A stretch of DNA of 64,000 bases from contig OZ004588.1 of the NCBI GenBank assembly GCA_963924555.1, forward strand, positions 2,418,001 through 2,482,000, in the 5' to 3' direction. This DNA is from Crambe crambe. Its lineage: Eukaryota; Porifera; Demospongiae; Poecilosclerida; Crambeidae. The translations under genes were made by a program, and so were the position numbers. The notes under the pieces are model-generated. The model did no database searches and was not told where the DNA came from. It saw nothing but the letters and a program-made list of their open reading frames with translations. This document shows, one piece after another, positions 637-55,243 of this stretch (position 1 is its first letter; each line of letters opens with the position of its first letter).

Positions 637-764
637 CTGCAAATGAAAATTCCATGATAAAGATAAGACTAAAATTATCAAAAGTCAAAGCAGTGAAGGA
701 AGACACTAGCTAAATTAATAATAATAAAACTAGACAATAAGTCAAGGATGTAAATTTGACCAAC

Positions 765-2911
765 CTTTCATAGGAGAATGATCTGGTTGATCACACCACA
801 GCAGGTGTCTAGGAGTGAGATCTCCAAATACTTTGTTATCTCGACTGCATATCCAGAGACCATCCCCGAAAGTGGCAACATGGGGATCTTTAGCCCCACA
901 AGGACAAAGAAGTGCTTTCGAAGGGATCGAGTTGTTGTACCCAAGAACTATCATGGCTTTCTTTAGACCTGCAAACACAGCCTGAGAGACAAAAGAGCAG
1001 AGCTTGCTACAAACTTTCTCGGCAGTGTCATCCACATGGATCTCAACATGAAAGAATGTGTCAATCAGAGTGACTGAGCCAGGAAAGCCAGGTACCATGA
1101 ATTGGGTGCAGTTTCTATTCAGGCAAGCTGGAGTGTTGGAAGGAGGAAGCAACACTATTTTCCAAGGACGGGGAAACTGGTTGTCATTAGAGATAAGAAA
1201 GCAGGTAAGACTGCAGTATGTACCGAGACGAGGACCTCCAAGTGGGAAGTCCAGAGCAAGAGGAGCTACAAGTGAATCATTAGAGACACGATATTTATGA
1301 ACCTTCTCAGTTTCAAGAACAGGAAGGAGGGCAGGCATGATGTACTCTGAAGCACTAAAGTCAGCTATGATGAGCAACTTTCTAAAGAGCTTGACCAGAT
1401 CAACAGGAGTAAAGATATCAGGCACATAATGCTTATTAAACTCTTTCTCTTGCAGAAGCTCTAAGCTAACAATGCCATGATCTTTAAACTTCTTCCAGCC
1501 TCCAGAGAGTGCACGAAGTGCTTTTCCACCAACCTTTTCTCTCAAGCAATAGGTGATCTCCACTAACTCGGTTACCTTATCCAAAAGGACTTGAGGGTTA
1601 GTGAATACAACACCATCCAGAACCTCGGGGAAATAAAGACTGACGAAATTTCATCTAGGAACTGGAGAGCTGCATCCAGTGTATGCTCATCAAAGAAAAG
1701 CTTATTTGCTGCTCTAAGGCATTCTTCTTTGCTCAATACCCCTCTGTCTAAAGAAAGGCTGACTTCTTCAAGGATAATTTCCAAAGAGAAATACTGAAGG
1801 GGCACATTAATGGGATCAGGCATACACTTTGTTAGGACTACACTTTGGATATCTCTAGCTGTACTCTTATCAAGCTCTTCAGGATTTTTGGCATTGACTG
1901 GAAAGATCACCTCATTTTCTGCCAGGTTGTAATAGACGACTTCCTCTTGGAACATCGGCAGTAACAGCTCTTCTAACTTCTTGTTCTTCTCCTCTCTTGT
2001 CTCGGTCGTGCACAGGTGTTCTTCGTCCCTGTGGGTCCCTATGATCATGATTTTAGAGCACTCACCTTTAGTATCGGGAGATGATCTGTGGGTGTGCAAA
2101 GTGCGAAGGCAGTGCTTCAATAGCTGCTCGTTGGACTGAGCTGATTGGTAAGGTGTCCCCACACGTTTCCCATCCTCCCCAAAATACTCTACCATGGGCT
2201 TGGTGGCGAGTTCTTCTGACAACTTGAAGACGAATATGTAGAGGGACATGCGACGAAGAAATACAGGTAACACCTCATGAAATTGCGGTTGTCCACCAGA
2301 ATCGATTAGTTTAACTTTCCGGAAGACAGGTAAAGCTTCAAGATCATCTGATTTGGAAATTTCATCCAATAATTTTGTTAGTTCATCATGTGTGCCAAGG
2401 GATGGCAGTGAAATCTTTTCCTTCGAATGAGAACCTTTCTTTGGTTTGCTAGCAGATGTTGGACTGGAAGGAGTTGCCAGGTGTACTCGTGGATGTACGT
2501 CACGTGTCGACTTATCCTCTTTACTACGAGCTTCTTTATGCTCAGGAGTCGTTAATATTTCATCAGAATCAGAACTCTCACCAGAATTAGCTGATGACTC
2601 ACAATCTTCACCTGAATTTGTGTCGTTGACATGAAGCTGAGCATATATGGCCCTTGCTAGAATTTCTTTCCGTTCTTTTGGATGAAGCTTTTTCCACTCC
2701 TTTGATGTTACTCCCATTTGAATCATTGTAATTGGACGAGCAGCTAAAGGAGTGCTTATTCTGGCTTGTCTTGGAGGGTTACCAACAAAAAGGTCCATAG
2801 AACTTGATTTTCCGGTTCCTGGAGCCCCATAAAGGAGGGCTTTGTTGATCTGGGACTTTACGTGTCCCTGCTTCATTGCTTCGTTATACAGTCGACGTGA
2901 CTCAGCGGAAC
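765..2911 (-). CDS. Roc/COR-like P-loop GTPase exon, frameshifted
   Basis: The exon starts after acceptor CCCGTAG (2914-2912), reading SAESRRLYNEAMKQGHV, and ends at donor GAAAG|GTTGG. GTPase motifs are visible: G1 GAPGTGKS, G3 LIDSGGQPQFHEVLP, and IIGTHRDE in the G4 position (THRD rather than NKxD). A Ser/Glu-rich insert of about 100 residues lies between G1 and G3. The second half (FTNPQVLLDKVTELVEI onward, ending CPCGAKDPHVATF and PRHLLWC) resembles the COR-like tail of invertebrate Roc/COR death-domain proteins, a recollection rather than a search result. The frame breaks near 1637: translation reads to 1572 in one frame while the homologous continuation lies in another. The exon length, 2,147 nt, is one short of a multiple of three, so a single missing base explains it. 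Mutation, assembly error or pseudogene cannot be distinguished from sequence alone. Confidence 0.75.
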
Positions 2912-2914
2912 CTA

Positions 2915-4245
2915 CGGGTAGTCAATGAAACAAAAAATAGACGAATGTCATTGTGCATGTATAAATTATATTACTAATATTTAATACACCCACTCAAATT
3001 TAATTTTTTTCTACTTGGTATGTGTTACACACACAACAGACATAGAACATCATTGCATACTATCCTGCAATTTTTTCTTGGACATTACATATTAGTTTTT
3101 TTGCATGCACATGTAAGGACATTCTACTATATTCCAGATATGATAGTGGAATGATAAACAAAACAATTTCTTCTTTCTTTATGCTCACTAGCTGCCAAGT
3201 GAGTGCTGATCATGTTAGTGGTAGCCAGCTCCAAATTACGTAAGGTCAAGAATCAATCAGCAATCAAGAATTTGCTAGCAATTGACAGGATAGCTAGCTA
3301 CCTAGTACCACTTTAGTCAGCCAATGGTGGAGAACCTGATAATGCCAATAGTGCAACTAATAACATACAAATATTTATACTTATCACATTCCTGAAAAAT
3401 AGTAGCAGTAAAAAAATATACCGTATTCATATAAATTTTCGATGGGATTTTATTTTTGTTTTTTTCGTAGTCGATCAGAATCCTTGAAAATAATTAGTAC
3501 TATGACATCATAATGATAACGATGTGCATGCGTGCGTGATGCGGGATCATGGCCATTACCTGTCTCTCTTCTACAATGAAGTGTCTCGCTTTCCGTAGCA
3601 GTCCAGATTTTAGTCTGGCATCGCCAGCCCAGCTTTTCTTCTTTTTGGGGGACTATCTAGGTTTCTCTGTAGTAGCCACAAATCACGAGAAGGTAGCCAT
3701 CATGCATGTCACTCAGCCCCAGCAGCAGGCAATGATATAGCTATTATGCGCATGCATTATTTTCCATGTGTAAATTAGATCTGCAGAAATTCTTTATTAT
3801 AGGAACAGCTCCGGAAATCATGAAATTTTAAACCTCTGAAAATTTATACGATTATGGTATTTACACTGATTCCATAAAGAGCTAATTGGTTCCAAGATGC
3901 AATTTGAGACCTTGTTAATTCAATATCATATAGCTAGTGCTTCATCATATAAACCTTATGAAAACTAAATGCTCAAATTCATCAATCTAAGGAACAGGTG
4001 ATTCTTTTCTATGAGGTGATAGAAAGCTCATTATAGATGGTAAGCCTTCAATGTGTCCAGTTGAATATCTATTTCTTCTTTGTTTTCTATTTATTGTACG
4101 TAAGTCCTGGAGCTGACATGACTGAAGTTTCATCAATGATCTGAACTAGAAGTAGTTCTTGGCTTTTGTTGGGTTTGGATGATGGCCTTGCCTTGATATC
4201 AACTCCACGAACATAACTCTTTGAATCTTCCCCTAACCTTTCAGT
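2915..4245. other. Intron or intergenic stretch with a possible non-coding 5' exon
   Basis: No clear gene is visible. A GC-richer patch at about 3555-3720, read on the minus strand, ends in a donor-like GAGACAG|GTAATGG near 3558. Spliced to 2911 it would keep the frame, but a TAG lies about 35 codons upstream and there is no ATG. It could therefore be an alternative 5' untranslated exon of the GTPase gene. The remainder is AT-rich sequence without recognised features. Confidence 0.25.
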
Positions 4246-14140: not shown

Positions 14141-14636
14141 CAGAGTTTTGCAAGTTGCTTGTCACATTGCAAAATGCTAATACAAAAGTTGTGACAACTA
14201 AATCAACAATGTAGTAAGCTGAATAGAAATAGATCTGTGAATCTCATGCATAATCAGGGTTATAATTTTATGTTGAACTTGTTTAATAATTACTAAAATT
14301 ATCATGGTCCCCATGGCCCAGATTTACATCATATAATTGTAAGAAACTATGTTCTCAGGACTTCTAACCCAGGAACCCAGGACTTCTACTTGTAGTGCAT
14401 GATTTGGTTTCGGCAGCTAAAATCTGCACTTTGCAGAAATTCCCATTCCATTCAGTAGCAAATTTTAACTGCAAACAAGAATGAATTTTAAGACACCAAT
14501 ATATATAGTGTAGTGAAATTCAGTAGTACCATAGCCCTTGTGTACACTGTATGTACTATCTAGCTAGCAGACACAGGTGAGCATGCTCAGAATTCAAATT
14601 CAAAATAACTAGTGTACAGTACAAGAAGCAGTCAAA

Positions 14637-15586
14637 ATGCCAAAAGGATACTCAAAAGACCTTAGATGGCGGATAATTTGGAAGTATCTTCTACAAAAGA
14701 AGACAATAAAAGAGATTTCTAGGGAACTGTATGTAAACATCAGGTCAATTGAGAGATACATCTATCTTTTTTATACAACTGAGGATGTATCACCTAAATG
14801 CCAAAGGCATGGTCCATTACCACAAATGAGTGAGTTTGAGGAAATCACCATTTTAGAGACGCTGCTGAGTACACCCAGCATGTATCTTCGTGAGATACAA
14901 CAAAAGCTGTTACATATAACAGGATCCCGGTATGATTGTGCTACTATTTGCCGTACCATCAAAAGACTGGGTATGACTAGACAGAAAATGCGTCTAGTAG
15001 CAAGACAAAGGTGTGATGTTCAGAGAGCAAAATATATCTCTGAAATAATGGGATTTAACCCCAAAACTTTAATTTTCATTGATGAAACAGGATCAAACCA
15101 CCATAATACAATACGTAAATATGGATATGGTCTTCAAGGCATGACACCTGTTTCCCACAAATTTACTTTATATGGTAAGAGGTTGTCGGCCATAGGGATA
15201 CTGACTTTTCAGGGAATAGAAGATGTTTATATGTGAACTCGGATGTTTTCATGAATTTTGTACAATGGTGCTTACTTCCTATACTACTTCCATTCGATGG
15301 TGGCGACAATCCCTGTTCTGTAGTCATACTTGATAATGCATCTATCCACCATGTAGAAGCAGTAACTCAATTGATTTCAGCCACTGGTGCTTTAGTACAA
15401 TTTTTACCACCTTACTCCCCTGACTTGAACCCCATTGAGGAAGCATTTAGTCAAGTGAAGTCATATCTTAGAGATAATGAACTAAGTTATCAATCAACAA
15501 ACACACCTAGAATCATATTCGCTGAAGCATTTGCTTCAATTACTCCACTAGATTGTGTAAGGTTATATGTAATGATATATTTTTAG
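14637..15586 (+). pseudogene. IS630/Tc1-type DDE transposase, frameshifted
   Basis: The reading frame begins MPKGYSKDLRWRIIW, a helix-turn-helix DNA-binding region. It continues through QQKLLHITGSRYDCATICRT (second HTH) to the catalytic core: TLIFIDETGSNHH (first Asp), SVVILDNASIHH (second Asp) and QFLPPYSPDLNPIEEAFSQV (Glu), the DDE triad context of the IS630-Tc1 superfamily. The frame stops at about 15234 after GIEDVYM and continues in another frame with NSDVFMNFVQWCLLP. One missing base near 15228 accounts for this. The total of about 316 residues is normal for the family. The protein would cut and paste the enclosing element; this copy is not intact. Confidence 0.9.
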
Positions 15587-16741: not shown

Positions 16742-16904
16742 TTTTTCAAATCTGGCTGATGCATGACAGTCACATGATGGTAAATTTACATGTAAATGCC
16801 CTTTCTATTCAGCTATACTACATTATTGATTTAGTTGTCATAACTTTTGTATTAGCATTTTACAATGTGACAAGCAACTTGCAAAACTCTGTACACATCA
16901 ATTC

Positions 16905-17665
16905 CACCTTCCAAATAGTGGTGGACACACTGGGACCTCAACATAGTGGTGGACACACTGGGACCTCCACATAGTGGTGGACACACTGGAACCTCCACAT
17001 AGTGGTGGACACACTGGGACCTCCACATAGTGGAGGACACACTGGGACCTCCACATAGTGGTGGACACACTGGGACCTCCACATAGTGGTGGACACACTG
17101 GGACCTCCACATAGTGGTGGACACACATAGTGGTGGACACACTGGGACCTCCACATAGTGGTGGACACACTGGGACCTCCACATAGTGGTGGACACACTG
17201 GGACCTCCACATAGTGGTGGACACACTGGGACCTCCACATAGTGGTGGGCACACTGGGACCTCCACATAGTGGAGGACACACTGGGACCTCCACATAGTG
17301 GTGGACACACTGGGACCTCCACATAGTGGTGGACACACTGGGACCTCCACATAGTGGAGGACACACTGGGACCTCCACATAGTGGTGGACACACTGGGAC
17401 CTCCACATAGTGGTGGACACACTGGGACCTCCACATAGTGGTGGACCTCCACATAGTGGTGGACACACTGGGACCTCCACATAGTGGAGGACACACTGGG
17501 ACCTCCACATAGTGGTGGACACACTGGGACCTCCACATAGTGGTGGACACACTGGGACCTCCACATAGTGGTGGACACACTGGGACCTCCACATAGTGGT
17601 GGACACACTGGGACCTCCACATAGTGGTGGATACACTGGGACCTCCATACTGTGGTAGACACACT
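16905..17665. repeat. 28-bp minisatellite (about 26 units)
   Basis: The unit reads GTGGTGGACACACTGGGACC followed by TCCACATA, repeated tandemly with few substitutions (GGAGG for GGTGG) and some truncated units. Because 28 is not divisible by three and the unit lacks stops on the minus strand, all three minus frames stay open for hundreds of bases. This creates artificial open frames. The array sits 14 bp beyond the right end of the Tc1-type element. Confidence 0.95.
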
Positions 17666-17749
17666 GGGCAGGTTTCATACAGGAATTTGGATACATGGTG
17701 GACTATGCATATTGGCATGCCTGTGTGAGAAAAAAGTAACCACACCCAC

Positions 17750-18097
17750 TTTAATTACTTTTTACAACTGTCATGTACACTTAAAATTCAAAGCAAAGTT
17801 GTGAGTGTATTATGAATCCACTTCATGTACAATTACCTGTGGAAGGGAAGATAGTTTCCTTTTTAGGATTACTATTTTTAAGACACATTAAGTAATTATT
17901 TGTTTAGGGGGAATTTTAATCAGAGGGGGGTTTCTCCCCTTTCCCTCTCTGCTGTATGAAACCCTGGGATTACCACATATTGGCAGATACTGGTAAAACT
18001 TTACTTTATAAGGAGCGTGTTCTTAACTTGGAAAAGTGTATTTTGGAGTGTGTACACTCTGGTAGTGCCTTGCCTCACTTAGTATGTACACACTTAC
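17750..18097. other. Intronic sequence, nothing recognised
   Basis: AT-rich sequence between the minisatellite and death-domain exon 2, with no gene, repeat or hairpin seen. Confidence 0.4.
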
Positions 18098-44398: not shown

Positions 44399-45467
44399 GC
44401 TAAATGCTGACTAAGAGTGTTAGCTCAGGGGAGGTGAAATTATTTACAGAGGGCAAATAAACACTGGTTACTGGAGTCATAGGTTAAGTTACAGAGGGGA
44501 CTTACAAAGGGAAACTTGAGATAGGGACATGCAAATCATGCTGGCATAGATTTTCAATGCCAGCAGTTGAGTGAGAAGCATTTTAGTGAAGAAATAATAG
44601 GAAAAAAATTTCTGTGAATCATTGGCTGCTCTTGCTACATATGATGGTATCAGGCAGGGTTTCATACAGCGCAGGGGGGAAGGGGGAGATCCCCCTTTGA
44701 TTGAAATTCCCCCAACCAATTACTGAAACCCTGTCAGGCATGTGTGTTAGTGAAGTGGAAGTAGTAGCAGAGGCTTTGTATTTTGATGGATCAATGTACT
44801 CCATGGTTGTTCATGGACTGTATATATTTAGTATGGAAAACTTCAGAGTAGAAAAAGCTTATCAGATATCATACACTTTATTCAGCTTTGCAATCTCCTA
44901 GTTAAATGTACTATCATCATAATTATCATCATACACACTTTAACTCCAAGAAAACACATCTTTTGCTCCAAGATGGGTGGATCAATGGATGACCTTTACA
45001 AACCGGAAGCTATCACTGGACTATGCACACCCTCCTAGGGCTAAACTCAATTGATATGGTCTGATACAGGACAATAGAAAGGGATCCATATTGAAACAGA
45101 AAATGAATTATCATATCAACTGAAAGTGTTAACATGATAAACTCTGGATATGCCACTCTATATACATTAGCTAGGCCAGAGTGGGTAAAGGGTCTCAACA
45201 TTAGAAAGTCACAAGTCCAAATCATCTCTAGAATGAGAGGTGGGCCATGAAGTGCTCAGGTTTATAAACTACTCAGCACTATGCATGTTAAGAGATGGCA
45301 CGATATATAGGGACAATCAGAAGACGTACTAAACTGGGAGGATATGTGGCATACCTCATTGAAAAAGATACCTTTTGGGCAAGTTCCACACACCTTCTAG
45401 AGGATATCACATCATATTGCTTGAATCCAAAAGATAAAGGTGACAAGGTCAACATTACTAATACTAC

Positions 45468-45745
45468 TCAATGGTTGTTCAGTATTCAGTATACTACTCC
45501 ATGGTTGTTCAGTATTCAGTATACTCCATGATTCTTCAGTATACTACTCCATGGTTCTTCAGTATACCACTTCATGGTTGTTCAGTATTCAGTATACTAC
45601 TCCATGGTTGTTCAGTATTCAGTATACTACTCCATGGTTGTTCAGTATTCAGTATACTACTCCATGGTTGTTCAGTATTCAGTATACTACTCCATGGTTG
45701 TTCAGTATTCAGTATACTACTCCATGGTTGTTCAGTATACTACAA
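45468..45745. repeat. 30-bp minisatellite (about 9 units)
   Basis: The unit is CTACTCCATGGTTGTTCAGT plus ATTCAGTATA. The first units are irregular, the last five nearly identical. The unit length is a multiple of three, so the plus frame stays open (MVVQYSVYYS repeated); this is not taken as a gene. Confidence 0.9.
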
Positions 45746-46077
45746 ACTACACATACAGGCTAAATCAACTGATACAGGACAATAGAAAGGGATCCATATT
45801 GAAACAGAAAGTGAATGTTCATATTGACTGAAAATGCTAACCTTTCTAGATATGCCACTGTATATTAGCCATGGGTAAAGGGTCTCAACATTAAAACTCA
45901 CAAGTGCAGAATAGTCATCTGGTTGGCCAAGAGGTGCTCAGGTCTACAAACTCTCCATCGATTAGTACTATCCATGCTAGAGACAAGTGAGATGGTACAA
46001 TATATAGGGAGAGGGTGGGGTGTGTGTGTGTTCATCAAAAACAGCTCTATCTATAAACATCAGTGCTTCAGTGATCT

Positions 46078-46085
46078 CATGAAAA
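46078..46085. repeat. Target-site duplication, left (right copy 55152-55159)
   Basis: CATGAAAA on the left and CATAAAAA on the right, one mismatch, immediately outside the terminal inverted repeats. Confidence 0.75.
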
Positions 46086-46164
46086 GGTTATTTCCCTGTA
46101 TAAGCAGTCACGAAACATGCTTACTCAGCAAGCTATATGTAACATGCACATAGTTGCTGGTTGG

Positions 46165-46991
46165 CAATGGTGTAATAGTCATACTAGGTGTATCAGTTGT
46201 GTGTAATGGTTGTGCTAGGTGTATCAGTTGTAATGGTAGTGCTAGATGTATCAGTTGTAATGGTCGTGCTAGATGTATCAGTTGTAATGGTTGTGCTAGG
46301 TGTATCAGTTGTAATGGTCGTACTAGGTGTATCAGTTGTAATGGTCGTACTAGGTGTATCAGTTGTAATGGTTGTACTAGGTGTATCAGTTGTAATGGTC
46401 GTACTAGGTGTATCAGTTGTAATGGTTGTACTAAGTGTATCAGTTGTAATGATTGTACTAACATCAGTTAAAATGGTTGTACTAAGTGTATCAGTTGTAA
46501 TGGTTGTACTAACATCAGTTATAATGGTTGTGCTAAGTGTATCAGTTGTAATGGTTGTGCTAGGTGTATCAGTTGTAATGGTCGTACTAGGTGTATCAGT
46601 TGTAATGGTTGTACTAGGTGTATCAGTTGTAATGGTTGTGTTAGGTGTATCAGTTGTAATGGTTGTGTTAGATGTATCAGTTGCAATGGTTGTGCTAGGT
46701 GTATCAGTTGCATGGTCATACTAGGTGTATCAGTTGTAATGGTTGTGTTAGGTGTATCAGTTGCAATGGTTGTGCTAGGTGTATCAGTTGCAATGGTTGT
46801 GCTAGGTGTATCAGTTGCATGGTCATACTAGGTGTATCAGTTGTAATGGTTGTGTTAGGTGTATCAGTTGCAATGGTTGTGCTAGGTGTATCAGTTGTAA
46901 TGGTTGTGCTAGGTGTATCAGTTGTAATGGTTGTGCTAAGTGTATCAGTTGTAGTTGCAATGGTTGTGCTAGGTGTATGCTAGGTGTATTA
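46165..46991. repeat. Left terminal minisatellite, 27-bp unit (about 30 copies)
   Basis: The unit is GTGTATCAGTTGTAATGGTT plus GTGCTAG, with A/G variants (GTACTAG, GTGTTAG). It is the reverse complement of the right-end array at 54247-55050. The 27-bp length keeps frames open (MVVLGVSVV repeats), which should not be called as protein. It lies just inside the terminal repeat, where transposase-binding arrays are found in other transposons. Confidence 0.95.
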
Positions 46992-47905
46992 GTTATTAGG
47001 GGTTATGCTAGTCACAAGGGTTTGTCTGAAAAACAAGCATGAGTATAATGGTATAAGGGATGACCTCTTACAGTGGGTGTGACCATGAAGCCACTTGATA
47101 GCTATGCACAAGGTGTTCATGGAGAATGGGAAAATTCCCCAAATTACATAATTATAGTCTATAACTAGTAATATGTGTACCATAGACGCTGAATAGTAAC
47201 GACCCTTATAACACCCTGTCACTGATTTACCTACTTTGCATTTAGCTATAGCAACCCATGTAACACCAGTCGTTACATTTATTGAGAGGAAAATCGGAAT
47301 AACGTTAATAGGAACAGAATAACTGTTCACTATCATATGCCATTATCTGAGTCCAATTCAAAGAGACCATGATAATCAAGCAAAGAATTGCTACAAACAT
47401 TATTATGAATAGTTGGTAGCAATGTTATCATCATGGTTACAAACAACAGTGACCAATAGTTTATTACAACCCACAGGAATGTAACACTGTACACAATTGT
47501 AGCAACCCATATGTTTTGCTAAATGTTACAACAGAGTGGAATGTGATTTTTATCATTTCCATAAGCTACTTTGAATACTATTCATAGCTTGACATAATTA
47601 TTACTGCTTGCATGAATCTGAATGCAGTAAATAGGAAAGATGAACTCTCATGAATGAAAACTTCATGTTGATATTATGTCAATAAAATTTTGAATGGGGT
47701 AAAGTAGCAGGGTTCTTATTTTGTTAATTGGGATATCAGCAAGCATCCAGAATTATTATTTTAACAATGATTATGGAACAAAAAAAAAAGAAAAAAAAAA
47801 GGAAAGTGCAGTACACTTTGTAATTAATTATGTAGTACACAGTACTGGTGTATGATAGTGTGTTGTTTTTATTTCTTATTATAGCATGGAAAGAACCCAC
47901 AATTC
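46992..47905. other. Left interior of the transposon, non-coding
   Basis: Contains the repeat block 47179-47500 shared with 25833-26294 and an A-rich tract at 47779-47801. No gene is seen between the left array and the transposase 3' end. Confidence 0.5.
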
Positions 47906-47911
47906 TTTATT
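47906..47911 (-). terminator. Poly(A) signal of the transposase gene
   Basis: TTTATT on the plus strand gives AATAAA on the minus strand, 15 nt beyond the transposase stop codon. Confidence 0.5.
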
Positions 47912-47925
47912 ATAAACTTCTATTT

Positions 47926-50923
47926 TTATTTGAATAACTTGAGTTTTGATTGAACTTGGGATGAGTTTTTCTCTCTAAAAACCACAGTTTTTGGGAGTTG
48001 TTCAGTACACACTGGACTTTTTGAGTACATCACCAATTTGTTGTAGATACGTGTAACATTTTCAAATGAATCCTTATGGATGCTATAAATCTCCCACAAT
48101 ATTATTGCCTCAAAATCTGACCATACTCCTTCATTTAGAGGTTGGCCCCTTTCTTGTGCAAAACGCTTTGGTGTAGGAAGTTCCATCTGAGAGGAATGTG
48201 GTTGTCTATTCCTTTTCATCGTTTTTTTACTGGGTGGCCTCTTTCCATTGGAATTATTGCAATTCTTACAACGGCAAAGTGAATTGCATGGCTGTGACAG
48301 ATTGAAGCATTTACATCTTGATGAGTAAATAGGTGAAGGACAGCAGGATTTTGTATCATCTTTTTTATTTATTCCACAGCTGCAATGAACTTGCAAAGAC
48401 TTGTTTGGTGAACCAGAGCTTGGGCTTGTATTGTAGACCTTTACAACAGCATCATAATGACTTAATTGTGCCTGATAGAGTACAAAAATGCTGGCTTTAC
48501 TTGTGATGATATCAGGACTTGTAAAATAAAGTGCCTCTTTTGACAATTCTGAAGAAAATACTATTACTGGTGCTTGTAGTACTGCTGCCATTGCTGTTGG
48601 CATCAAATCTCCAAGTGCTCCAACAAAAAAACCGTCCTGCAAAAATTTTTTAGCTTCAGCATTGTAATTTTCCATAACACCGTCAACGAAAAATGGTTGA
48701 TACTTTGAACTATTTTCAAGCAATTCTCGAACAAAAGCATTCCTTAGACACCTCACAAGGCCACTGAGCCCCTCCTCTTCTTTAAACCCTACTTTCTTCA
48801 GGCAGTTAGACCAAGAAGTCACAGAATGGAGAATACCAACTGCTACTGAAGAAAAGAAACAATTTCCATCAGGTGCAACTTGTTCAACAGTGAGGCCACT
48901 TGCTATGAGCTTCTTCTCCACATCATTGGTGACTATATTTGGAGGTTGACTGAGCTTTGGTTCATCAGCAGTTAACAATTTGAACAAATGTAATTGTTTA
49001 GATAGTTGATTAAGCTTCATAAATTCCAGTGATTTTGTTAATGCAAGTTTGGCAATACCATTCTTATAAAATTCCAGTGATGGTACTTCTTCAATGGAGT
49101 TATCTTTTCCCCATTGATTTGCATTTACAAATGTATCCCGATGATTAACCTGATCTGCTGCCTGTGGATAGATTCCTACAGGTGCATGACCTTTACCTGA
49201 GCAAGAACATGTGACAAATGCATTAGTGGCAACAAATTTTTTGCTAGCCAGGTTTTCTGAATTGTTATGTGCATGAATCAAAACAGTTAATAGAGCATAA
49301 GCAAGAAGAATGCCAATGCGTGTACGATCCATTAATGATTTTAAGTGCCGGTGAAAACGCTCGTTTCTGTTAGTACCCATACCAGGAGGAATATCAGATA
49401 GGCAGCCTGATTTAACATGTTTATCTAGATTATTAATAGCTTCCATTGATGAAGATGTCAGGATATGATTTCCAAATCCATCAGTAGTGCCTTTCCATCG
49501 TTCTCTAAAGGATGCTAATTTAGAAGAAATCGTTTCTTTAGAAGCAGTGTGTGTCTGTCTTTCATGACTCACATCACCATCTCTTCTAAAAACTAGCCTG
49601 AGATCTCTTATACAGTTATGGAACTGTGGATGTTTTTTTGACATTGCTTTTGTGATTCTCTGGACGGCATGAAAAAGGTCTAATTTCACTGTAGTTTCAG
49701 CCCCGAAGACATTCTGGATAGCTTTTCTGAGCTTGCAGCAATCATCCACATACACATACTTCACTTTTCGCTTCTGTGCAGCTGCTCTGTCATTGAGGTC
49801 CTGAAGTAGCCTAGTAATCTTGCTAAATGATGTTCCTTTCGTGAGCTGCCAAGTAAGCACAGACCCTTGAGAATTTAATACCAAAAACAAGCTATCATAC
49901 TGTGGAACCCAGATTCCATCTGGACGCAAATGACCAATATTCGTAGCAACTTTGAAAGTGTGGTCAAAACTGATCGATTCACTGACTTCTAAGGAATGTA
50001 GGTTACAAAGATAGGAACTTTCTACTTCTAGAAAGGAGGACAAAAAGCATTTAGAAATTATGTTGTCACTTGGGCTGATATGTTCCTTTCTGAACTTATC
50101 TGACAATTTGGATACCAATTGTGTACAATCTCCAAGGTCAGCCTTGTGTTGCAGTGTTAGTAAATACATTTGTTGACTGAAATGCTCCCATCTTCTCTCC
50201 AGTATTATTGACTCTATTTCATAAAAATTCAATCCTCGCCTGCAAAAAAGGAATAAGTTCTCGGCAAAATCTCTTGTGAACCCTGTCTTATGCAAAAGTT
50301 TGAAAGGAATCATTATTGGCGATGGAAAACTTTTCAAAATGCGCTCATCATGTGCTATTAGTTTGTGTCCCTTCTTGCATATATAGACTGCGCTGACCAA
50401 TAATACTATGTCTTCCATTGAGTGAAGCTTTCTTGGCTGCTTACTTGGTGACGAACCATCATTATAGGATGTAGAACATATCTCCTCCTTACATGTCATG
50501 CAATATTGTATTTGCGAATTTACTATACTTGGGTGAGTCAATAAAGGGTTCCATATAATTAATGGAGGTAGAAAAGAGAAGTCATTTTCCATGTTTACAT
50601 CAATATTGTAGGTTGCTGGAGGGATAATTATGCCATGAAATCCATCTCCTAATAATATTAACAAATTGAATTTGATGGATATACATGGAGGCTGTGTCTA
50701 GAAGACAGCTACATGCATTTACTAGCTAAACATTATAGTGAGTGTCTTCAACTATTTTAACGTATCTATGCTATTAGAAGTCTTGGAATTTACCTTTATT
50801 TTCTTCAAAATATTTTATGATTTTAGCAATGTAGTCCTTTGTCTGGCCTGACAGTTGCCCAGCATCAGCAACTGGGTTAAATAGCAAACTGAGTAAACTA
50901 CTAGTGAATACTATAACCTCCAT
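47926..50923 (-). CDS. MULE-like DDE transposase with OTU protease and CXC domains (two exons, about 950 aa)
   Basis: Exon 1 (50923-50794) starts MEVIVFTSSLLSLL and ends AAAG|GTAAAT, phase 1. Exon 2 (50648-47926) follows acceptor TTATTAG, and the join keeps frame (2,853 nt total). Residue numbers below count from the exon-2 open frame of 912. A Cys-rich N-terminal region (CMTCKEEIC, then CKKGH) is probably zinc-binding. The DDE core has SISFDHTFK (D234), VYVDDCCKLRKAI (D307/308), KLDLFHAVQRI (H332) and GTNRNERFHRHLK (E435), the MULE-type arrangement. An OTU-type cysteine protease follows, with APDGNCFFSS (D599, C602) and SHYDAV (H736). Then comes a CXC zinc motif (HCSCG... SSRCKCF... CRCKNCNN, about 760-803), a basic stretch and a helical tail. 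It would bind and cut the element ends; OTU domains cleave ubiquitin-type conjugates, their role here being unknown. This gene appears intact. Confidence 0.85.
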
Positions 50924-51077
50924 ACAGTGAATCATCTTTGCAATCTCAGCATGTGCTTGTCACATGGCTATGTGCATGGTCTCTGCACATGCTCAGATAA
51001 TTATTTCTTGTGGTTTTTCAAGTTAGCAGACATTGTATGCATGTTAGCTATAGCTGTGATTGACCAAGAAACCAGTC
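50924..51077. promoter_or_regulatory. Divergent intergenic region of the transposon
   Basis: About 154 bp separates the ATG of the transposase (minus) from the ATG of the ATPase (plus). Both transcripts must start in or near it, so it is the likely bidirectional promoter. No specific box is claimed. Confidence 0.5.
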
Positions 51078-53734
51078 ATGTCTTCTGTGACAGAAAGGAA
51101 AGGGACCATTGGAACTACTAAAGGATCAGGTGAAAATGAAGTTTTCCAATCCAAAGCGAACTTTAGTTTAAAAGTAGTGGCCAAGGTTGAGGGGATGAAG
51201 GATGGTTACATTGCGCGTGTGACAAGGGCTCCTGACAATGTGACAAGGTAATTTGAATGTACATGTAGTTCACACTTGCAAGCCATGCAATATTTTAGAT
51301 TTTCATGTAACTTTATAGGGATTGTTTTTTCTGTGCATCAAGTGCTATGCACAAAAATGAGTTTGTTCAAGCAATTAACTCTGGATTCAACTGTGGCGGG
51401 ATGTTTTGTACATTGTCAGACGTTGATCTTGGGAACTACCTTCTCAAAAAGGTCATGGAATTTATGAGTGAAAATGAGCCGCACACCCTGATAGCTGTGA
51501 GAAACGTAGGACAACAAGAATTTAAACCTCCAGTGTTTGTTATTTCACCTGAGGTATGTTAACCACATAATTAGTTCCTAACACCACCCATGGTGGTCTG
51601 GTTCAAACCACTCACCACTCATGGTTTCTGATAAACCCACCTCAAAACCTTTTTTTTTCTTTACAGCTTCATATTGATGAAGATGGATACACCATAGACT
51701 CTAATAGTCAAAGGACCTTTTTTGATCACCAGCACATTGAGCCACGCATCGTTCCTACCATCTTTACACCTTATCGACGTTCATTACAACCATTGGTCGA
51801 ATTGTGGAAAGCTATGGAAATATGTTCTCAGCATAATAGTGGATCTGCACTCTTCACGTTTGGTGCTGTTGCAATGAATATGCATTTTAAAACATTAGTG
51901 GAACTTAAGGGAGGTGCTCCTGTTGTGGTTTTATATGGTGAACCTGATGTTGGGAAGACTACTATTGCTAATGCAGCCATGAGTGTAATTGGCATCGAAT
52001 CGTGCAGTTTCAGGGGGACTCGTAGGGAGTTTTTCGTTCATCTGGCATCCCAAACGTCTTTGGGACTAATGTATGATGACCCCAACAAGATACAAGAAGT
52101 AGAAAACATCATTATTGATTTCTACAATGGCATGACACGTGGTTCTTTTAAGCGTGGACTTGAGACTCCTAAATGTGGGTTCCTTTTAGCATGCAACTTT
52201 TCCTTGGGAAAGATACAGCGGTAAGAGGAGACAATTATAATTTCTTACTAATTACATAATATTATTTTCTCTCTCTGTTTGTAGACTATTATCACGGGTG
52301 GTCATAATTCCTTTTAAAGGCCCCTCAATACAGGCACGCAATGCAGAGCAAAGACATGCCTTTTCTTCACTTAATCGGCTTAAAGAAGAAGCGTCATGCA
52401 GCATTGGATATTATATAGCATTGGGAAAGCTTTACAGAGAGAGGGGTGTTTTTGAAGTTGACGAATATGAACGAAAACTTCTGCAACTCCTCCCAAATTG
52501 TGGTGGCCGAACTATAAAAGGATATGTGACAGTCGAGGGTAGAAATCAAACTTTATTCACGTTTTAGTCAAACTTTCCTTTTGTCATGACTGATGCTTTA
52601 CAATAGAATTTTCTGCCTTTCGAACTTTTTTTTTCGAAAGTAGAAAGCGTGAATAAAGTTTGATTTCTACCCTCGACTGTCACATATGCTAACTTGATTT
52701 GGTTTACTGAGCAGGTTAGAAGATAAGCTGTAATTATGTATACATTCTGTATCACCTAAACGAAAAAACTGCAGGTAGCCGATTTGGTTGGTAAATCGAG
52801 TGAGGATGTTTGGGGAATAGCTTCTAAGTTCTCCCCTCAATTGGACATGCTTCAACACAAAGGAGACACCATCAGTAACGAAGCACCATTGGATCCAAAT
52901 GTGCTCTGTGCTCAGTACTGGAGTAAAGTGGGCGAAAATCTTATTGAATTGGCCAAAAAACTTGACAGCACGAACAAGGTTAAATATAAGCTAAGTATTT
53001 AGTTGTGTACCAAGATAATGAAATTTTGGTTAGTCAGAAAATTGTAACTGGATAAATTATGGTTTAATAGTCGCCCATTATTTCTATTATTAGGTACGAG
53101 CATTCATCCAATTGGGTAAGAGTGCAGGACACGACAGCATCAGCATTGCTGTTGATGTTGCGACTGAACTCATGAACCGAAAAGGAATTACTCCGAAATT
53201 TACCCTTAATGATCTCAGAGATAACATCACTCAGTTCAAATGTGGAGCTAGAGGTCAAAGTAGGAGATTCCACAAACTTGATGGAAACCTTGTGTGGAAT
53301 GGCACTAAAATTCCTCTAAAAGTACCAGTGGTTTACCTTAACATATTCCCTGAGGATATTCAACTTCCTCTTGCTAGATGTAAGCAGCTACATGTATTAT
53401 TATTATTATGAACTTCATTTATTCAATGTATACAGGTGTTAACCCCCAATATAAAGCTCACACAGCAGGACATAGCAATACCAGGCAAGAAGAGGACACT
53501 GATAATGGAACTAGTGAAGGAATTGCTAATCCTGTAAATACTGGAGACAGTCAGCAAGAAGAAGTCCAGGAAGACCCAGAAGAAGCATCAGGAATCAATC
53601 AAGTCCTAGATGATAGTGGAATTGGAGGTGATACTGTTCCCACCTTCAACAGAAAGCGGCCGGTAGATGCACTATTTGATTCTTTACACCAAGGGTTTTT
53701 ACCTTCTGGAACTCGACGCCGACAAGATTCATAA
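51078..53734 (+). CDS. DUF927-like P-loop ATPase (seven exons), disrupted by a MITE
   Basis: Exons 51078-51247, 51319-51553, 51667-52220, 52285-52714, 52775-52978, 53094-53379 and 53436-53734 join with matching phases (2, 0, 2, 0, 0, 1). Without the hairpin insertion in exon 4 the CDS is 2,016 nt, 671 aa. Motifs: LFTFGAVAMNMHF, VVVLYGEPDVGKTTIANAA (Walker A, about residue 226-234), LGLMYDDPN (Walker B-like, about 272), CGFLLACNFS (sensor-like) and RVVIIPFKG. The GAxA...GEPxxGKTT...SVIG context resembles DUF927-type helicase/ATPases of bacterial mobile elements; that link is from memory and moderate. The C-terminus is acidic and disordered, ending RRRQDS. The start is the first ATG after an in-frame TGA. 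Being inside the same terminal repeats as the transposase, it is an element-encoded ATPase, perhaps for DNA unwinding or replication. Confidence 0.75.
52526..52683. mobile_element. 158-bp hairpin MITE inserted in exon 4 of the ATPase gene
   Basis: GTGACAGTCGAGGGTAGAAA... (36 bp, 52526-52561) is a perfect reverse complement of the end at 52683. Flanks are ATAT on both sides; the palindromic context also allows a TA duplication with ends TGTGACAG. Removing element plus one duplication (162 bp) restores TIKGYANLIWFTEQ up to donor CAG|GTTAGA. The insertion does not shift frame but brings an in-frame TAG (FTF then stop). Confidence 0.9.
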
Positions 53735-54107
53735 TTGTTATAGCTAGTTAGAATGCAATCCTGATTTTCCTTCTGAATAATGACTTCAAAAGAATAATGA
53801 TCAACCATAAAACAATGCACCATATTATTATTCAAGACCCAGATTGAGTTAAGGAATTATTATTCATGTGTCTTGGATGCTAGAATTTGTAGCCAAGACA
53901 CATTATGGACTGTTGTCTATGAAATCAGGAGTAGAAATTCCAAGTGACTAATCATAAATGTACATATTTAAGTATGTACTAACCAGTTGTACGTATTTTG
54001 ACCTCGTCAAGTTGAAAACTTGAGTGGCGCTAATAGAACAAAGCATTTACCTTGGGCATGAATTTATTTTTTTCCTACACCTGATATAGCTATATACAAC
54101 ATATGTA
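53735..54107. other. 3' flank of the ATPase gene, no feature
   Basis: Non-coding sequence between the ATPase stop and the nested MITE. No gene is seen. Confidence 0.4.
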
Positions 54108-54113
54108 CAATCT

Positions 54114-54240
54114 CAGGGCTCACAATAACAGTCAGTCACAGGACATTTGCCAGTGAAGTTCTTCATTTGTCTGGTCATTTTCTGCCTTTGTCCAACCAAT
54201 TTTTATGTCTGGACAATAAAGAGTGTTACTGTGAGCCCTG
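54114..54240. mobile_element. 127-bp MITE nested in the transposon's right interior
   Basis: The ends CAGGGCTCACAATAAC and GTTACTGTGAGCCCTG are inverted repeats (one mismatch in 16). Both sides carry CAATCT (54108-54113 and 54241-54246), a perfect 6-bp target duplication. Confidence 0.8.
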
Positions 54241-54246
54241 CAATCT

Positions 54247-55050
54247 AGCACCATTAGCTACAACCGATACACCTAGTACAACCATTACAACTGATACACC
54301 TAGCACAACCATTACAACTGATACACCTAGTACAACCATTACAACTGATACACCTAGTACAACCTTTACAACTGATACACCTAACAACCATTACAACTGA
54401 TACACCTAGCACAACCATACAACTGATATATACACCTAGTACGACCATTACAACTGATACACCTAGTACGACCATTACAACTGATACACCTAGCACAACC
54501 ATTACAACTGATACACCTAGCACAACCATTACAACTGATACACCTAACACAACCATTACAACTGATACACCTAACACAACCATTACAACTGATACACCTA
54601 ACACAACCATTACAACTGATACACCTAGTACGACCTTTACAACTGATACACCTAGCACAACCTTTACAACTGATACACCATACCTAGCACGACCTTTACA
54701 ACTGAGACACCTAGCACAACCATTACAACTGATACACCTAGCATGATCTTTACAACTGATACACCATTACAACTGGTACACCTGGCACGACCTTTACAAC
54801 TGATACACCTAGCACAACCTTTATAACTGATACACCATTACAACTGATACACCTAGTATGACCTTTACAACTGATACACCATTGCAACTGATACACCTAG
54901 CACGACCTTTACAACTGATACACCTAGCACAACCTTTACAACTGATACACCTAGCACGATACACCTAGTATGACCATTACAACTGATACACCATTACAAC
55001 TGATACACCTACAACCTTTACAACAGATACACTTAGCACAACTATTAACT
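54247..55050. repeat. Right terminal minisatellite, 27-bp unit, inverted relative to the left array
   Basis: The units read CTAGCACAACCATTACAACT plus GATACAC, the reverse complement of the left-end unit. There are about 29 copies, with more interruptions (for example CTTTACAACTG variants and partial units after 54700) than in the left array. Confidence 0.95.
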
Positions 55051-55243
55051 AGCAACTAGCAACTGTTGCATACTATGTACATGTTATGTAATATATAGCT
55101 ATTACTTGTTGAGTAAGCACATTTCGTGACTGCTTATACAGGGAAATAACCCATAAAAATGCAACACATTATGTGTATTGTGTTGAGAGGGGAGGGAGAG
55201 GGGAATATCCCACATCTTCTCCAACCCCCAGATCCATATAATA

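What the first reader, a model, noticed from the sequence alone, without database searches (positions are those of the whole stretch)
46086..55151. A complete, apparently undescribed two-gene transposon: DDE-OTU-CXC transposase plus DUF927-like ATPase
One pair of terminal inverted repeats and an 8-bp duplication enclose two divergent, spliced genes. A transposase with an OTU deubiquitinase-like domain and a CXC domain is unusual. Pairing it with a replication- or helicase-type ATPase suggests a mobile element with its own DNA-processing ATPase, in contrast to ordinary single-gene cut-and-paste transposons. I do not recall this combination as a named family.
Basis: partly seen in the sequence, partly recalled or inferred. 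Interest (0 to 1): 0.92.

Follow-up and report, generated by a model that had tools for sequence, protein, structure and literature searches.

The report
Two-gene transposon with helicase-like ATPase
This is a 9-kb animal DNA transposon that carries a cut-and-paste transposase fused to deubiquitinase-like and DNA-binding-like domains, together with a second gene for a helicase-like ATPase, and the same pairing recurs at other places in the genome, so the ATPase looks like part of the mobile machine rather than a passenger.

Summary
The element at 46086-55151 is real: 30-bp perfect terminal inverted repeats (5'-GGTT), inverted subterminal minisatellites, a 7-of-8 target duplication; a 449-bp derivative elsewhere has an exact 8-bp duplication. 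The transposase has an invariant D-D-E with DxxH (IS256/MuDR/hAT/P/Kolobok/Dada signature), an OTU domain with conserved catalytic residues, and a CXC domain. The second gene is a DUF927-like, SF3/AAA+-type ATPase; a 160-bp MITE interrupts its exon 4 here, so "complete" holds only structurally. The pairing is not chance: 9 of 24 ATPase loci in the 143-Mb genome lie within 5 kb of a related transposase. One family has two copies on different contigs, one 9,872 bp with perfect ends and an exact 8-bp duplication. A sister family with three near-identical copies carries a different ATPase, DUF3987. I read this as an unnamed lineage of two-gene DDE transposons with exchangeable helicase-like ATPases. 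Ten paper searches (capped listings) showed no description; Repbase and Dfam were unavailable. The ATPase's role is inferred. Against: 14 of 24 ATPase loci lack a detected transposase within 20 kb, 12 of 25 transposase loci lack a detected ATPase, and three relics of this family lack it.

The parts
46078..46085 (.). left copy of the target-site duplication, CATGAAAA
   Evidence: differs from the right copy at 1 of 8
46086..46180 (+). left terminal inverted repeat (inner limit approximate); first 30 bp identical to the right end
46184..46953 (+). subterminal 27-bp minisatellite array, about 28.7 units
47926..50648 (-). transposase exon 2 (DDE with DxxH, OTU, CXC); open throughout
50794..50935 (-). 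predicted transposase exon 1
   Evidence: splice sites by eye, not tested with RNA
50936..51077 (.). 142-bp stretch between the two divergent genes
   Evidence: from the predicted gene starts
51078..51247 (+). ATPase exon 1 (predicted)
51319..51553 (+). ATPase exon 2; relative P0128 reads from this exon into exon 3 without an intron
51667..52220 (+). ATPase exon 3: Walker A GEPDVGKTT, Walker B-like LGLMYDDP, sensor-like CNF; 91 relatives
52285..52524 (+). ATPase exon 4, part before the MITE
52525..52684 (.). 160-bp MITE with TA duplication inserted in ATPase exon 4
52685..52714 (+). remnant of ATPase exon 4 after the MITE (relative P0136 reads through this place)
52775..52978 (+). ATPase exon 5 (predicted)
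53094..53379 (+). ATPase exon 6 (predicted); single DNA match in the genome, itself
53436..53734 (+). ATPase exon 7 and stop (predicted)
54259..55047 (-). right subterminal 27-bp minisatellite array, inverted relative to the left array
55057..55151 (-). right terminal inverted repeat (inner limit approximate)
55152..55159 (.). right copy of the target-site duplication, CATAAAAA

Best explanation
The element is a cut-and-paste DNA transposon of an unnamed lineage. Its transposase joins a DxxH-type DDE nuclease of the IS256/MuDR/hAT/P/Kolobok/Dada group to an OTU domain and a CXC domain, and the lineage makes 8-bp duplications. It carries a second gene for an SF3/AAA+-type ATPase that moves with it. 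Shown by sequence: termini, duplications, conserved catalytic residues, co-mobilisation of both genes in at least one family, and a different P-loop ATPase (DUF3987) in a sister family. Inferred: the transposase binds the long inverted arrays and ends (the CXC helping DNA contact), cuts and pastes; the ATPase is a helicase-like, ATP-driven remodeller that opens or clears DNA at the ends or the gapped product; the OTU domain removes ubiquitin from the transposase or from repair or chromatin proteins. The DUF3987 partner in one sister family suggests that an ATP-dependent step is kept although the ATPase can be replaced.
For: Ends and arrays. A 449-bp derivative with the same ends and exact 8-bp duplication ACTAAAAC at C11:5973161-5973609. 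D245, D318, D340, H343 and E446 in 87 of 87 aligned transposases; OTU C613 in 85 and H747 in 87 of 87; CXC cysteines in 86-87 of 87. Profile matches to OTUD3 (E 4.4e-9) and the MSL2 CXC domain (E 1.5e-4); IS256 model in 6 of 42 members, best E 9.5e-6; phage transposase family E 7e-5. ATPase: phage primase and clamp-loader families in 31 and 40 of 45 members, best E 1e-4. Pairing: 9 of 24 ATPase loci, the window's included, within 5 kb of a transposase locus; for 8 of the other 23, binomial P 1.6e-16, loci treated as independent although some are related copies. C11 and C20 copies 94.6% identical over 5,591 bp spanning transposase and part of the ATPase, each bounded by the same exact 22-bp ends, C20 with exact duplication CCCCAATC. 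Sister family: C3 and C1 copies with exact duplications GGGACCCC and CACTCTGT and a DUF3987 gene (E 1.4e-14). Five contig lengths shared between the two environmental protein lists against 0.04 by chance.
Against: 14 of 24 ATPase loci have no transposase match within 20 kb; a second transposase query added three weak loci, none near an ATPase locus. Of 25 transposase loci, 12 have neither ATPase detected within 6 kb, and 11 of 14 merged DUF3987 loci have no such transposase within 15 kb (positions). Three relics of this same family (C8:7126300, C3:2639979, C3:3166137; longest pieces 72-75% identical) have no ATPase match in the genome-wide searches, and profiles found none in the stretches held around them. 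The C11 two-gene copy shows only a 6-bp direct repeat (ACAAAT). The transposase is split over three frames in the C20 copy and two in the C11 copy, by introns or decay. The ATPase of the window copy is interrupted. No helicase activity is shown: the best solved-structure match, a helicase, has E 0.71, and DUF927 is below its cut-off wherever a score was shown. The ATPase piece gives no usable dN/dS (1 synonymous, 4 nonsynonymous changes).
Confidence: 0.62

Rival explanations
1. The ATPase works like TnsC, MuB or IstB of bacterial transposons: an AAA+ protein that polymerises on target DNA, chooses the insertion site and licenses the transposase, rather than a helicase.
For: A DDE transposase paired with a separate AAA+ ATPase has this bacterial precedent (recalled; not tested here). 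phrog_168 clamp-loader ATPase matches 40 of 45 members. IstB_IS21 matches only 2 of 45, best E 0.2.
Against: Matches to primase families are of similar strength (phrog_1139 in 31 of 45), and the sister family's partner is DUF3987, a family I associate with primase-helicase proteins (recalled). No IstB-type match above noise.
Confidence: 0.25
2. The ATPase is a passenger or a self-standing selfish gene that was captured several times and is not needed for transposition.
For: 14 of 24 ATPase loci without a detected transposase within 20 kb; relics of the same family without an ATPase; gene order varies between divergent, tandem and convergent (positions).
Against: Co-location at 9 of 24 loci although most transposase pairs compared are only 27-45% identical. 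Transposase and ATPase distances correlate across 7 loci (r 0.74; 3% of permutations reach it), but this probably rests on the near-identical C11/C20 pair (without C3 r 0.88 and 5%; without C3 and C8 r 0.96 and 8%). In five environmental pairs the ATPase exon 3 is 81-87% identical while the transposase is 39-44%; this compares a core exon with a whole protein, but suggests strong constraint.
Confidence: 0.2
3. It is an ordinary MuDR/hAT/P/KDZ element already catalogued in Repbase for a sponge or another animal.
For: DxxH DDE core and 8-bp duplications fit the hAT/P/MuDR range (passages of PMC3706591 and PMC9587614); Zisupton also makes 8-bp duplications (passages of PMC12730594).
Against: No hAT, MULE, P-element or KDZ (PF18758) model in the full Pfam list for the window protein at E up to 1, in five relatives or three other transposases of this genome at E up to 0.1, nor among the 25 of 36 families shown for 42 members. 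OTU plus CXC plus ATPase was not seen in the paper listings.
Confidence: 0.2
4. The grouping in the window is accidental: a one-gene transposon inserted beside a host ATPase gene.
For: In this genome the ATPase of the window has only distant relatives (23-33% identity) and its exon 6 has a single DNA match, itself.
Against: Both genes lie between the same pair of termini, and an independent family repeats the arrangement between its own termini.
Confidence: 0.03

Closest known systems
Ginger1 DNA transposons (PMC2836005, passages seen)
   Same: DDE transposase with a C-terminal OTU or Ulp1 protease; often intron-containing; terminal inverted repeats
   Different: Ginger1 is Gypsy-integrase-like with 4-bp CCGG/CCGT duplications; here 8-bp, DxxH type, CXC domain and a second ATPase gene
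Kolobok lineages with accessory proteins (PMC9587614, passages seen)
   Same: DxxH group DDE transposase; several lineages carry an accessory DNA enzyme (RecQ helicase, nucleases)
   Different: Kolobok duplicates TTAA (4 bp); no DUF927- or DUF3987-like ATPase is named in the passages seen
MuDR / IS256 and Dada (PMC3706591, PMC10045372, passages seen)
   Same: DDE with DxxH, long duplications; IS256 model is the best bacterial match
   Different: no MULE domain match; Dada inserts in small RNA genes with 6-7 bp duplications, and OTU or CXC is not mentioned in the passages seen
KDZ (Kyakuja-Dileera-Zisupton), Zisupton (PMC12730594, PMC9297572, passages seen)
   Same: Zisupton makes 8-bp duplications, multi-exon; KDZ elements can carry an extra enzyme gene (TET/JBP)
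   Different: PF18758 was not found in the scans run
Tn7 TnsC, Mu MuB, IS21 IstB (recalled)
   Same: separate AAA+ ATPase partner of a DDE transposase
   Different: bacterial; only IstB was represented in a scan, with no match above noise
5dgk_A, 'active helicase' in the PDB (that it is a DUF927-type helicase of a staphylococcal cassette is recalled; the paper is not held)
   Same: best solved-structure alignment over the Walker A and B region
   Different: E 0.71, not significant; bacterial

Membership tests
DDE transposases with C/DxxH (hAT, P, MuDR, Kolobok, Dada, IS256 group) | D, D, E triad with C/DxxH between second D and E | tested here: met
   D245, D318, D340, H343, E446 in 87 of 87; definition from passages of PMC9587614 and PMC3706591; fold not tested
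cut-and-paste TIR transposon | terminal inverted repeats and target duplication of fixed length | tested here: met
   exact 8 bp at 4 of 6 insertions examined, 7 of 8 in the window, 6-bp repeat at C11
KDZ / Zisupton | KDZ transposase domain PF18758 | tested here: not met
   absent from the full list for the window protein at E up to 1, from five relatives and three other transposases of the genome, and from the 25 of 36 families shown for 42 members
Ginger1 | Gypsy-type integrase with 4-bp CCGG/CCGT duplication | tested here: not met
   8-bp duplications of other sequence; no integrase model for the window protein
Kolobok | TTAA duplication | tested here: not met
   duplications are 8 bp and not TTAA
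MuDR (MULE) | MULE transposase domain | tested here: inconclusive
   no MULE model shown; Transposase_mut in 2 of 42, best E 0.0036, IS256 in 6 of 42, best E 9.5e-6
hAT | hAT dimerisation domain and BED finger (recalled) | tested here: not met
   no such match for the window protein at E up to 1, nor among the families shown
DUF927 ATPase | Pfam PF06048 above its gathering score | tested here: not met
   18.8 bits against 22.6; 40 of 45 relatives match at E up to 1, best E 0.0012
DUF3987 ATPase (sister family only) | Pfam PF13148 above its gathering score | tested here: met
   54.5 bits against 27 for L056:901-1533
OTU cysteine protease | OTU fold with catalytic Cys and His | tested here: met
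   profile E 4.4e-9 to OTUD3; C613 in 85 and H747 in 87 of 87; activity untested; window protein alone is below the Pfam cut-off, C11:2490599 and L056 transposases are above it
SF3 helicase | strand-unwinding activity and SF3 motifs A, B, B', C (recalled) | tested here: inconclusive
   Walker A, DD and sensor-like N visible; no significant structure match; activity not testable here

The most novel reading that the evidence does not exclude
A new superfamily of eukaryotic DDE transposons in which transposition depends on a co-encoded, replaceable SF3-like helicase ATPase: an ATP-driven, two-component cut-and-paste system, possibly with a replicative step, whose OTU domain counters host ubiquitin signalling. 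One branch replaced its DUF927-like ATPase by a DUF3987 ATPase.
Probability: 0.33. Interest if true: 0.82.

Novelty: new variant of a known kind. Interest (0 to 1): 0.62.

Why it matters
Eukaryotic cut-and-paste transposons usually work with one protein, whereas several bacterial DDE systems need an AAA+ partner (both recalled). A eukaryotic lineage with a conserved helicase-like partner would be a natural system for asking what an ATPase adds to DDE transposition. The DUF3987 sister family gives an evolutionary control: the same transposase lineage with a different ATPase. The OTU and CXC domains also make the link between transposition and ubiquitin testable.

Tried and rejected
The full-length ATPase search found nothing at E up to 0.001, probably because of its introns; the exon-3 search found 91 relatives. 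Scans of viral contigs and of GTDB genome contigs found no relatives; Rfam and tRNA scans of the window found nothing. The phage collection gave one weak clamp-loader match at 29% identity. KDZ, Ginger, Kolobok and hAT membership were rejected as in the table. I first thought the sister family L056 lacked an ATPase, because my DUF927-like profile found none; reading its ORFs showed a P-loop gene that is DUF3987. Checkpoint notes 4 and 5 call the sister pair divergent; its coordinates show it is convergent, and this report uses that. Note 3 calls several frames intact from the search table; a later check shows the C20 transposase in three frames and the C11 one in two. A first search for the left end of the C11 copy failed because that end lies further out. 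Structure prediction was never available, so the DDE and ATPase folds were not tested.
Full report
THE OBSERVATION. The element runs from 46086 to 55151 (9,066 bp). Its two ends are identical over 30 bp (GGTTATTTCCCTGTATAAGCAGTCACGAAA) and similar beyond. A 20-bp core of the end has one exact match on each strand of the window and no other with up to 3 mismatches, against 0.01 expected. The flanking octamers are CATGAAAA and CATAAAAA, 7 of 8. Inside the ends lie inverted arrays of a 27-bp unit: about 28.7 copies on the left, 18.6 in the period-27 row on the right, where a period-54 row reaches 55047. On the minus strand an open frame of 923 codons with a predicted first exon makes a 955-aa transposase; on the plus strand seven predicted exons make an ATPase.

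A CORRECTION. The ATPase gene of this copy is not intact. A 160-bp MITE with inverted ends and a TA duplication sits at 52525-52684, inside what relative P0136 reads as uninterrupted exon 4. It belongs to a high-copy family: 40 of 374 candidates were scored and are 95-100% identical over nearly the whole 151-bp query, one elsewhere in the genome identical. A splice that skips the MITE stays in frame, so the gene may still be expressed; this is untested.

THE TRANSPOSASE. The search returned 200 relatives, 120 of them listed. In an alignment of 87 (86 of the 120 plus the window; partial ones were left out), D245, D318, D340, H343 and E446 are present in 87 of 87, with D-D spacing 69-77 and D-E spacing 120-133. 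[quoted passage not shown] Weak matches point the same way: IS256 in 6 of 42, best E 9.5e-6, and a phage transposase family at E 7e-5. The profile of 42 sequences matches OTUD3 at E 4.4e-9 and the MSL2 CXC domain at E 1.5e-4; at E up to 1, Pfam OTU was matched by 28 of 42 and MSL2-CXC by 26 of 42. The OTU catalytic cysteine is kept in 85 and the histidine in 87 of 87.

THE ATPASE. Exon 3 has 91 relatives, 40-92% identical. It carries GEPDVGKTT, LGLMYDDP and CNFSLGKIQ stretches. DUF927 is the best Pfam lead but below cut-off (18.8 against 22.6 bits). Phage primase and clamp-loader families match 31 and 40 of 45 members weakly. The best solved-structure alignment of a wider profile is to a helicase at E 0.71, which is only a lead; the narrower profile and the spliced protein gave nothing significant, mostly Walker A-region matches to GTPases and AAA proteins.

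DO THE TWO GENES BELONG TOGETHER? In the environmental protein lists, five contig lengths are shared exactly between 91 ATPase and 120 transposase entries (5,705; 18,309; 28,987; 35,460; 93,964), against 0.04 by chance for contigs over 5 kb, of which there are 45 and 75. This identifies contigs by length only. In the window's own genome (143.1 Mb, 119 contigs, unnamed) the window transposase matches 60 stretches, which I merged by eye into 25 loci. Three ATPase queries give 24 merged loci. Nine of 24 lie within 5 kb of a transposase locus and a tenth at 5.5 kb; for 8 of the 23 loci other than the window's, the binomial probability is 1.6e-16, treating loci as independent, which related copies are not. 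Orientation varies: divergent in the window, C11:5116061/5117891, C20 and C3:2431226/2437006; tandem at C10 (two loci), C8, C16 and C3:2589564; convergent at C11:2485092/2490599.

A SECOND TWO-GENE FAMILY. The C11 (5109496-5122876) and C20 (4281959-4291830) copies each have the same exact 22 bp at both ends. They are 94.6% identical over 5,591 bp covering the transposase and part of the ATPase, with 97.4% transposase and 97.0% ATPase amino-acid identity over 836 and 132 positions. C20 is 9,872 bp with an exact 8-bp duplication CCCCAATC; C11 is 13,381 bp and shows only a 6-bp repeat ACAAAT. The transposase reads in three frames in C20 and two in C11, by introns or decay, so neither is claimed to be active. 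The first transposase frame shows dN/dS of 0.24 over 451 codons (9 synonymous, 8 nonsynonymous changes); the ATPase piece has 1 and 4 changes, and the pair of frames over the transposase's C-terminal part gives 1.38 over 101 codons. Two copies with these ends on different contigs are direct evidence that the pair moves as a unit.

A SISTER FAMILY WITH ANOTHER ATPASE. Copies on C3, C17 and C1 are 98.9-99.9% identical over 6.3-7.0 kb, and a C6 stretch shares 4.2 kb at 98.5-98.8%. The C3 and C1 copies have exact 8-bp duplications GGGACCCC and CACTCTGT. Their second gene, convergent with the transposase, is DUF3987 (E 1.4e-14), found 2.2 kb from the transposase in the C3, C17 and C1 copies but not matched at C6. 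In a tree of the transposases (midpoint root, decayed and partial sequences included) this family groups with C10 and C3 loci that have DUF927-like partners (support 0.996), and DUF927-like partners occur on both sides of the root. I infer that the DUF927-like partner is older and was replaced once.

WHAT SPEAKS AGAINST. Fourteen of 24 ATPase loci have no transposase match within 20 kb, 12 of 25 transposase loci have neither ATPase within 6 kb, and 11 of 14 merged DUF3987 loci have no such transposase within 15 kb (from positions). A second transposase query added three weak loci, none near an ATPase. Three relics of the window's own family (longest pieces 72-75% identical) have no ATPase match. 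The searches are exon-by-exon and score only the best candidates, so some absences may be missed matches; others may be deletions. Transposase and ATPase distances correlate over 7 loci (r 0.74, 3% of permutations), but this probably rests on one near-identical pair.

MECHANISM. Shown: termini, duplications, conserved catalytic residues, joint movement in one family. Inferred: cut-and-paste by a DxxH DDE transposase acting on ends with long subterminal arrays; an ATP-driven helicase-like remodelling step; ubiquitin removal by the OTU domain. The bacterial-style target-selector reading of the ATPase is the main rival.

NOVELTY. OTU is known in Ginger1 transposases and in proteins of some Helitrons (passages of PMC2836005). 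Accessory helicases and nucleases are known from Kolobok (passages of PMC9587614). The combination DDE(DxxH)-OTU-CXC with a DUF927-like or DUF3987 ATPase was not met in ten searches of the open PMC library, of which up to 15-20 papers each were listed (up to 313 held the terms). Only listings were seen, except for passages of PMC12730594 (also its outline and abstract), PMC2836005, PMC9587614, PMC9297572, PMC3706591, PMC10045372 and PMC4455052. Repbase and Dfam were not searchable, so 'undescribed' remains open.

Noticed in passing
G000:C11:2485092-2493208, about 3 kb beyond the end of the window: A second ATPase and transposase pair (convergent, transposase 37% identical to the window's, open frame of 907 codons) lies close downstream of the window. 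Whether both lie in one element was not tested.
   Followed up: partly
window 52525-52684: 160-bp MITE of a high-copy family with TA duplication; one copy elsewhere in the genome is identical over the queried 151 bp.
   Followed up: partly
window 14613-15236: Tc1/IS630-like transposase fragment, weak matches to HTH_Tnp_IS630 and DDE_3.
   Followed up: no
window 742-2921, minus strand: Open frames, one with a weak Roc (Ras of complex) match, possibly a Roc/COR-type gene.
   Followed up: no
window 16852-17754 and 45425-45763: Minisatellites open in several frames and unrelated to the element's 27-bp unit.
   Followed up: no
window, C11:5109496-5122876 and L056: The window element and the C11/C20 family have unrelated subterminal minisatellite units in inverted orientation at both ends, and the sister family shows yet another repeated unit on both sides.
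   Followed up: partly
P0122/P0006, P0144/P0025, P0145/P0031, P0151/P0052, P0173/P0044: On contigs apparently holding both genes, ATPase exon 3 is 81-87% identical to the window's while the transposase is only 39-44% identical. A core exon is compared with a whole protein, but the accessory gene looks more constrained than the transposase.
   Followed up: no
G000 C3:3148012, C3:3988100, C13:1199815, C15:4184523, C5:2271636 and others: Eleven of 14 merged DUF3987 loci have no match to this transposase lineage within 15 kb; they may belong to other mobile elements.
   Followed up: no
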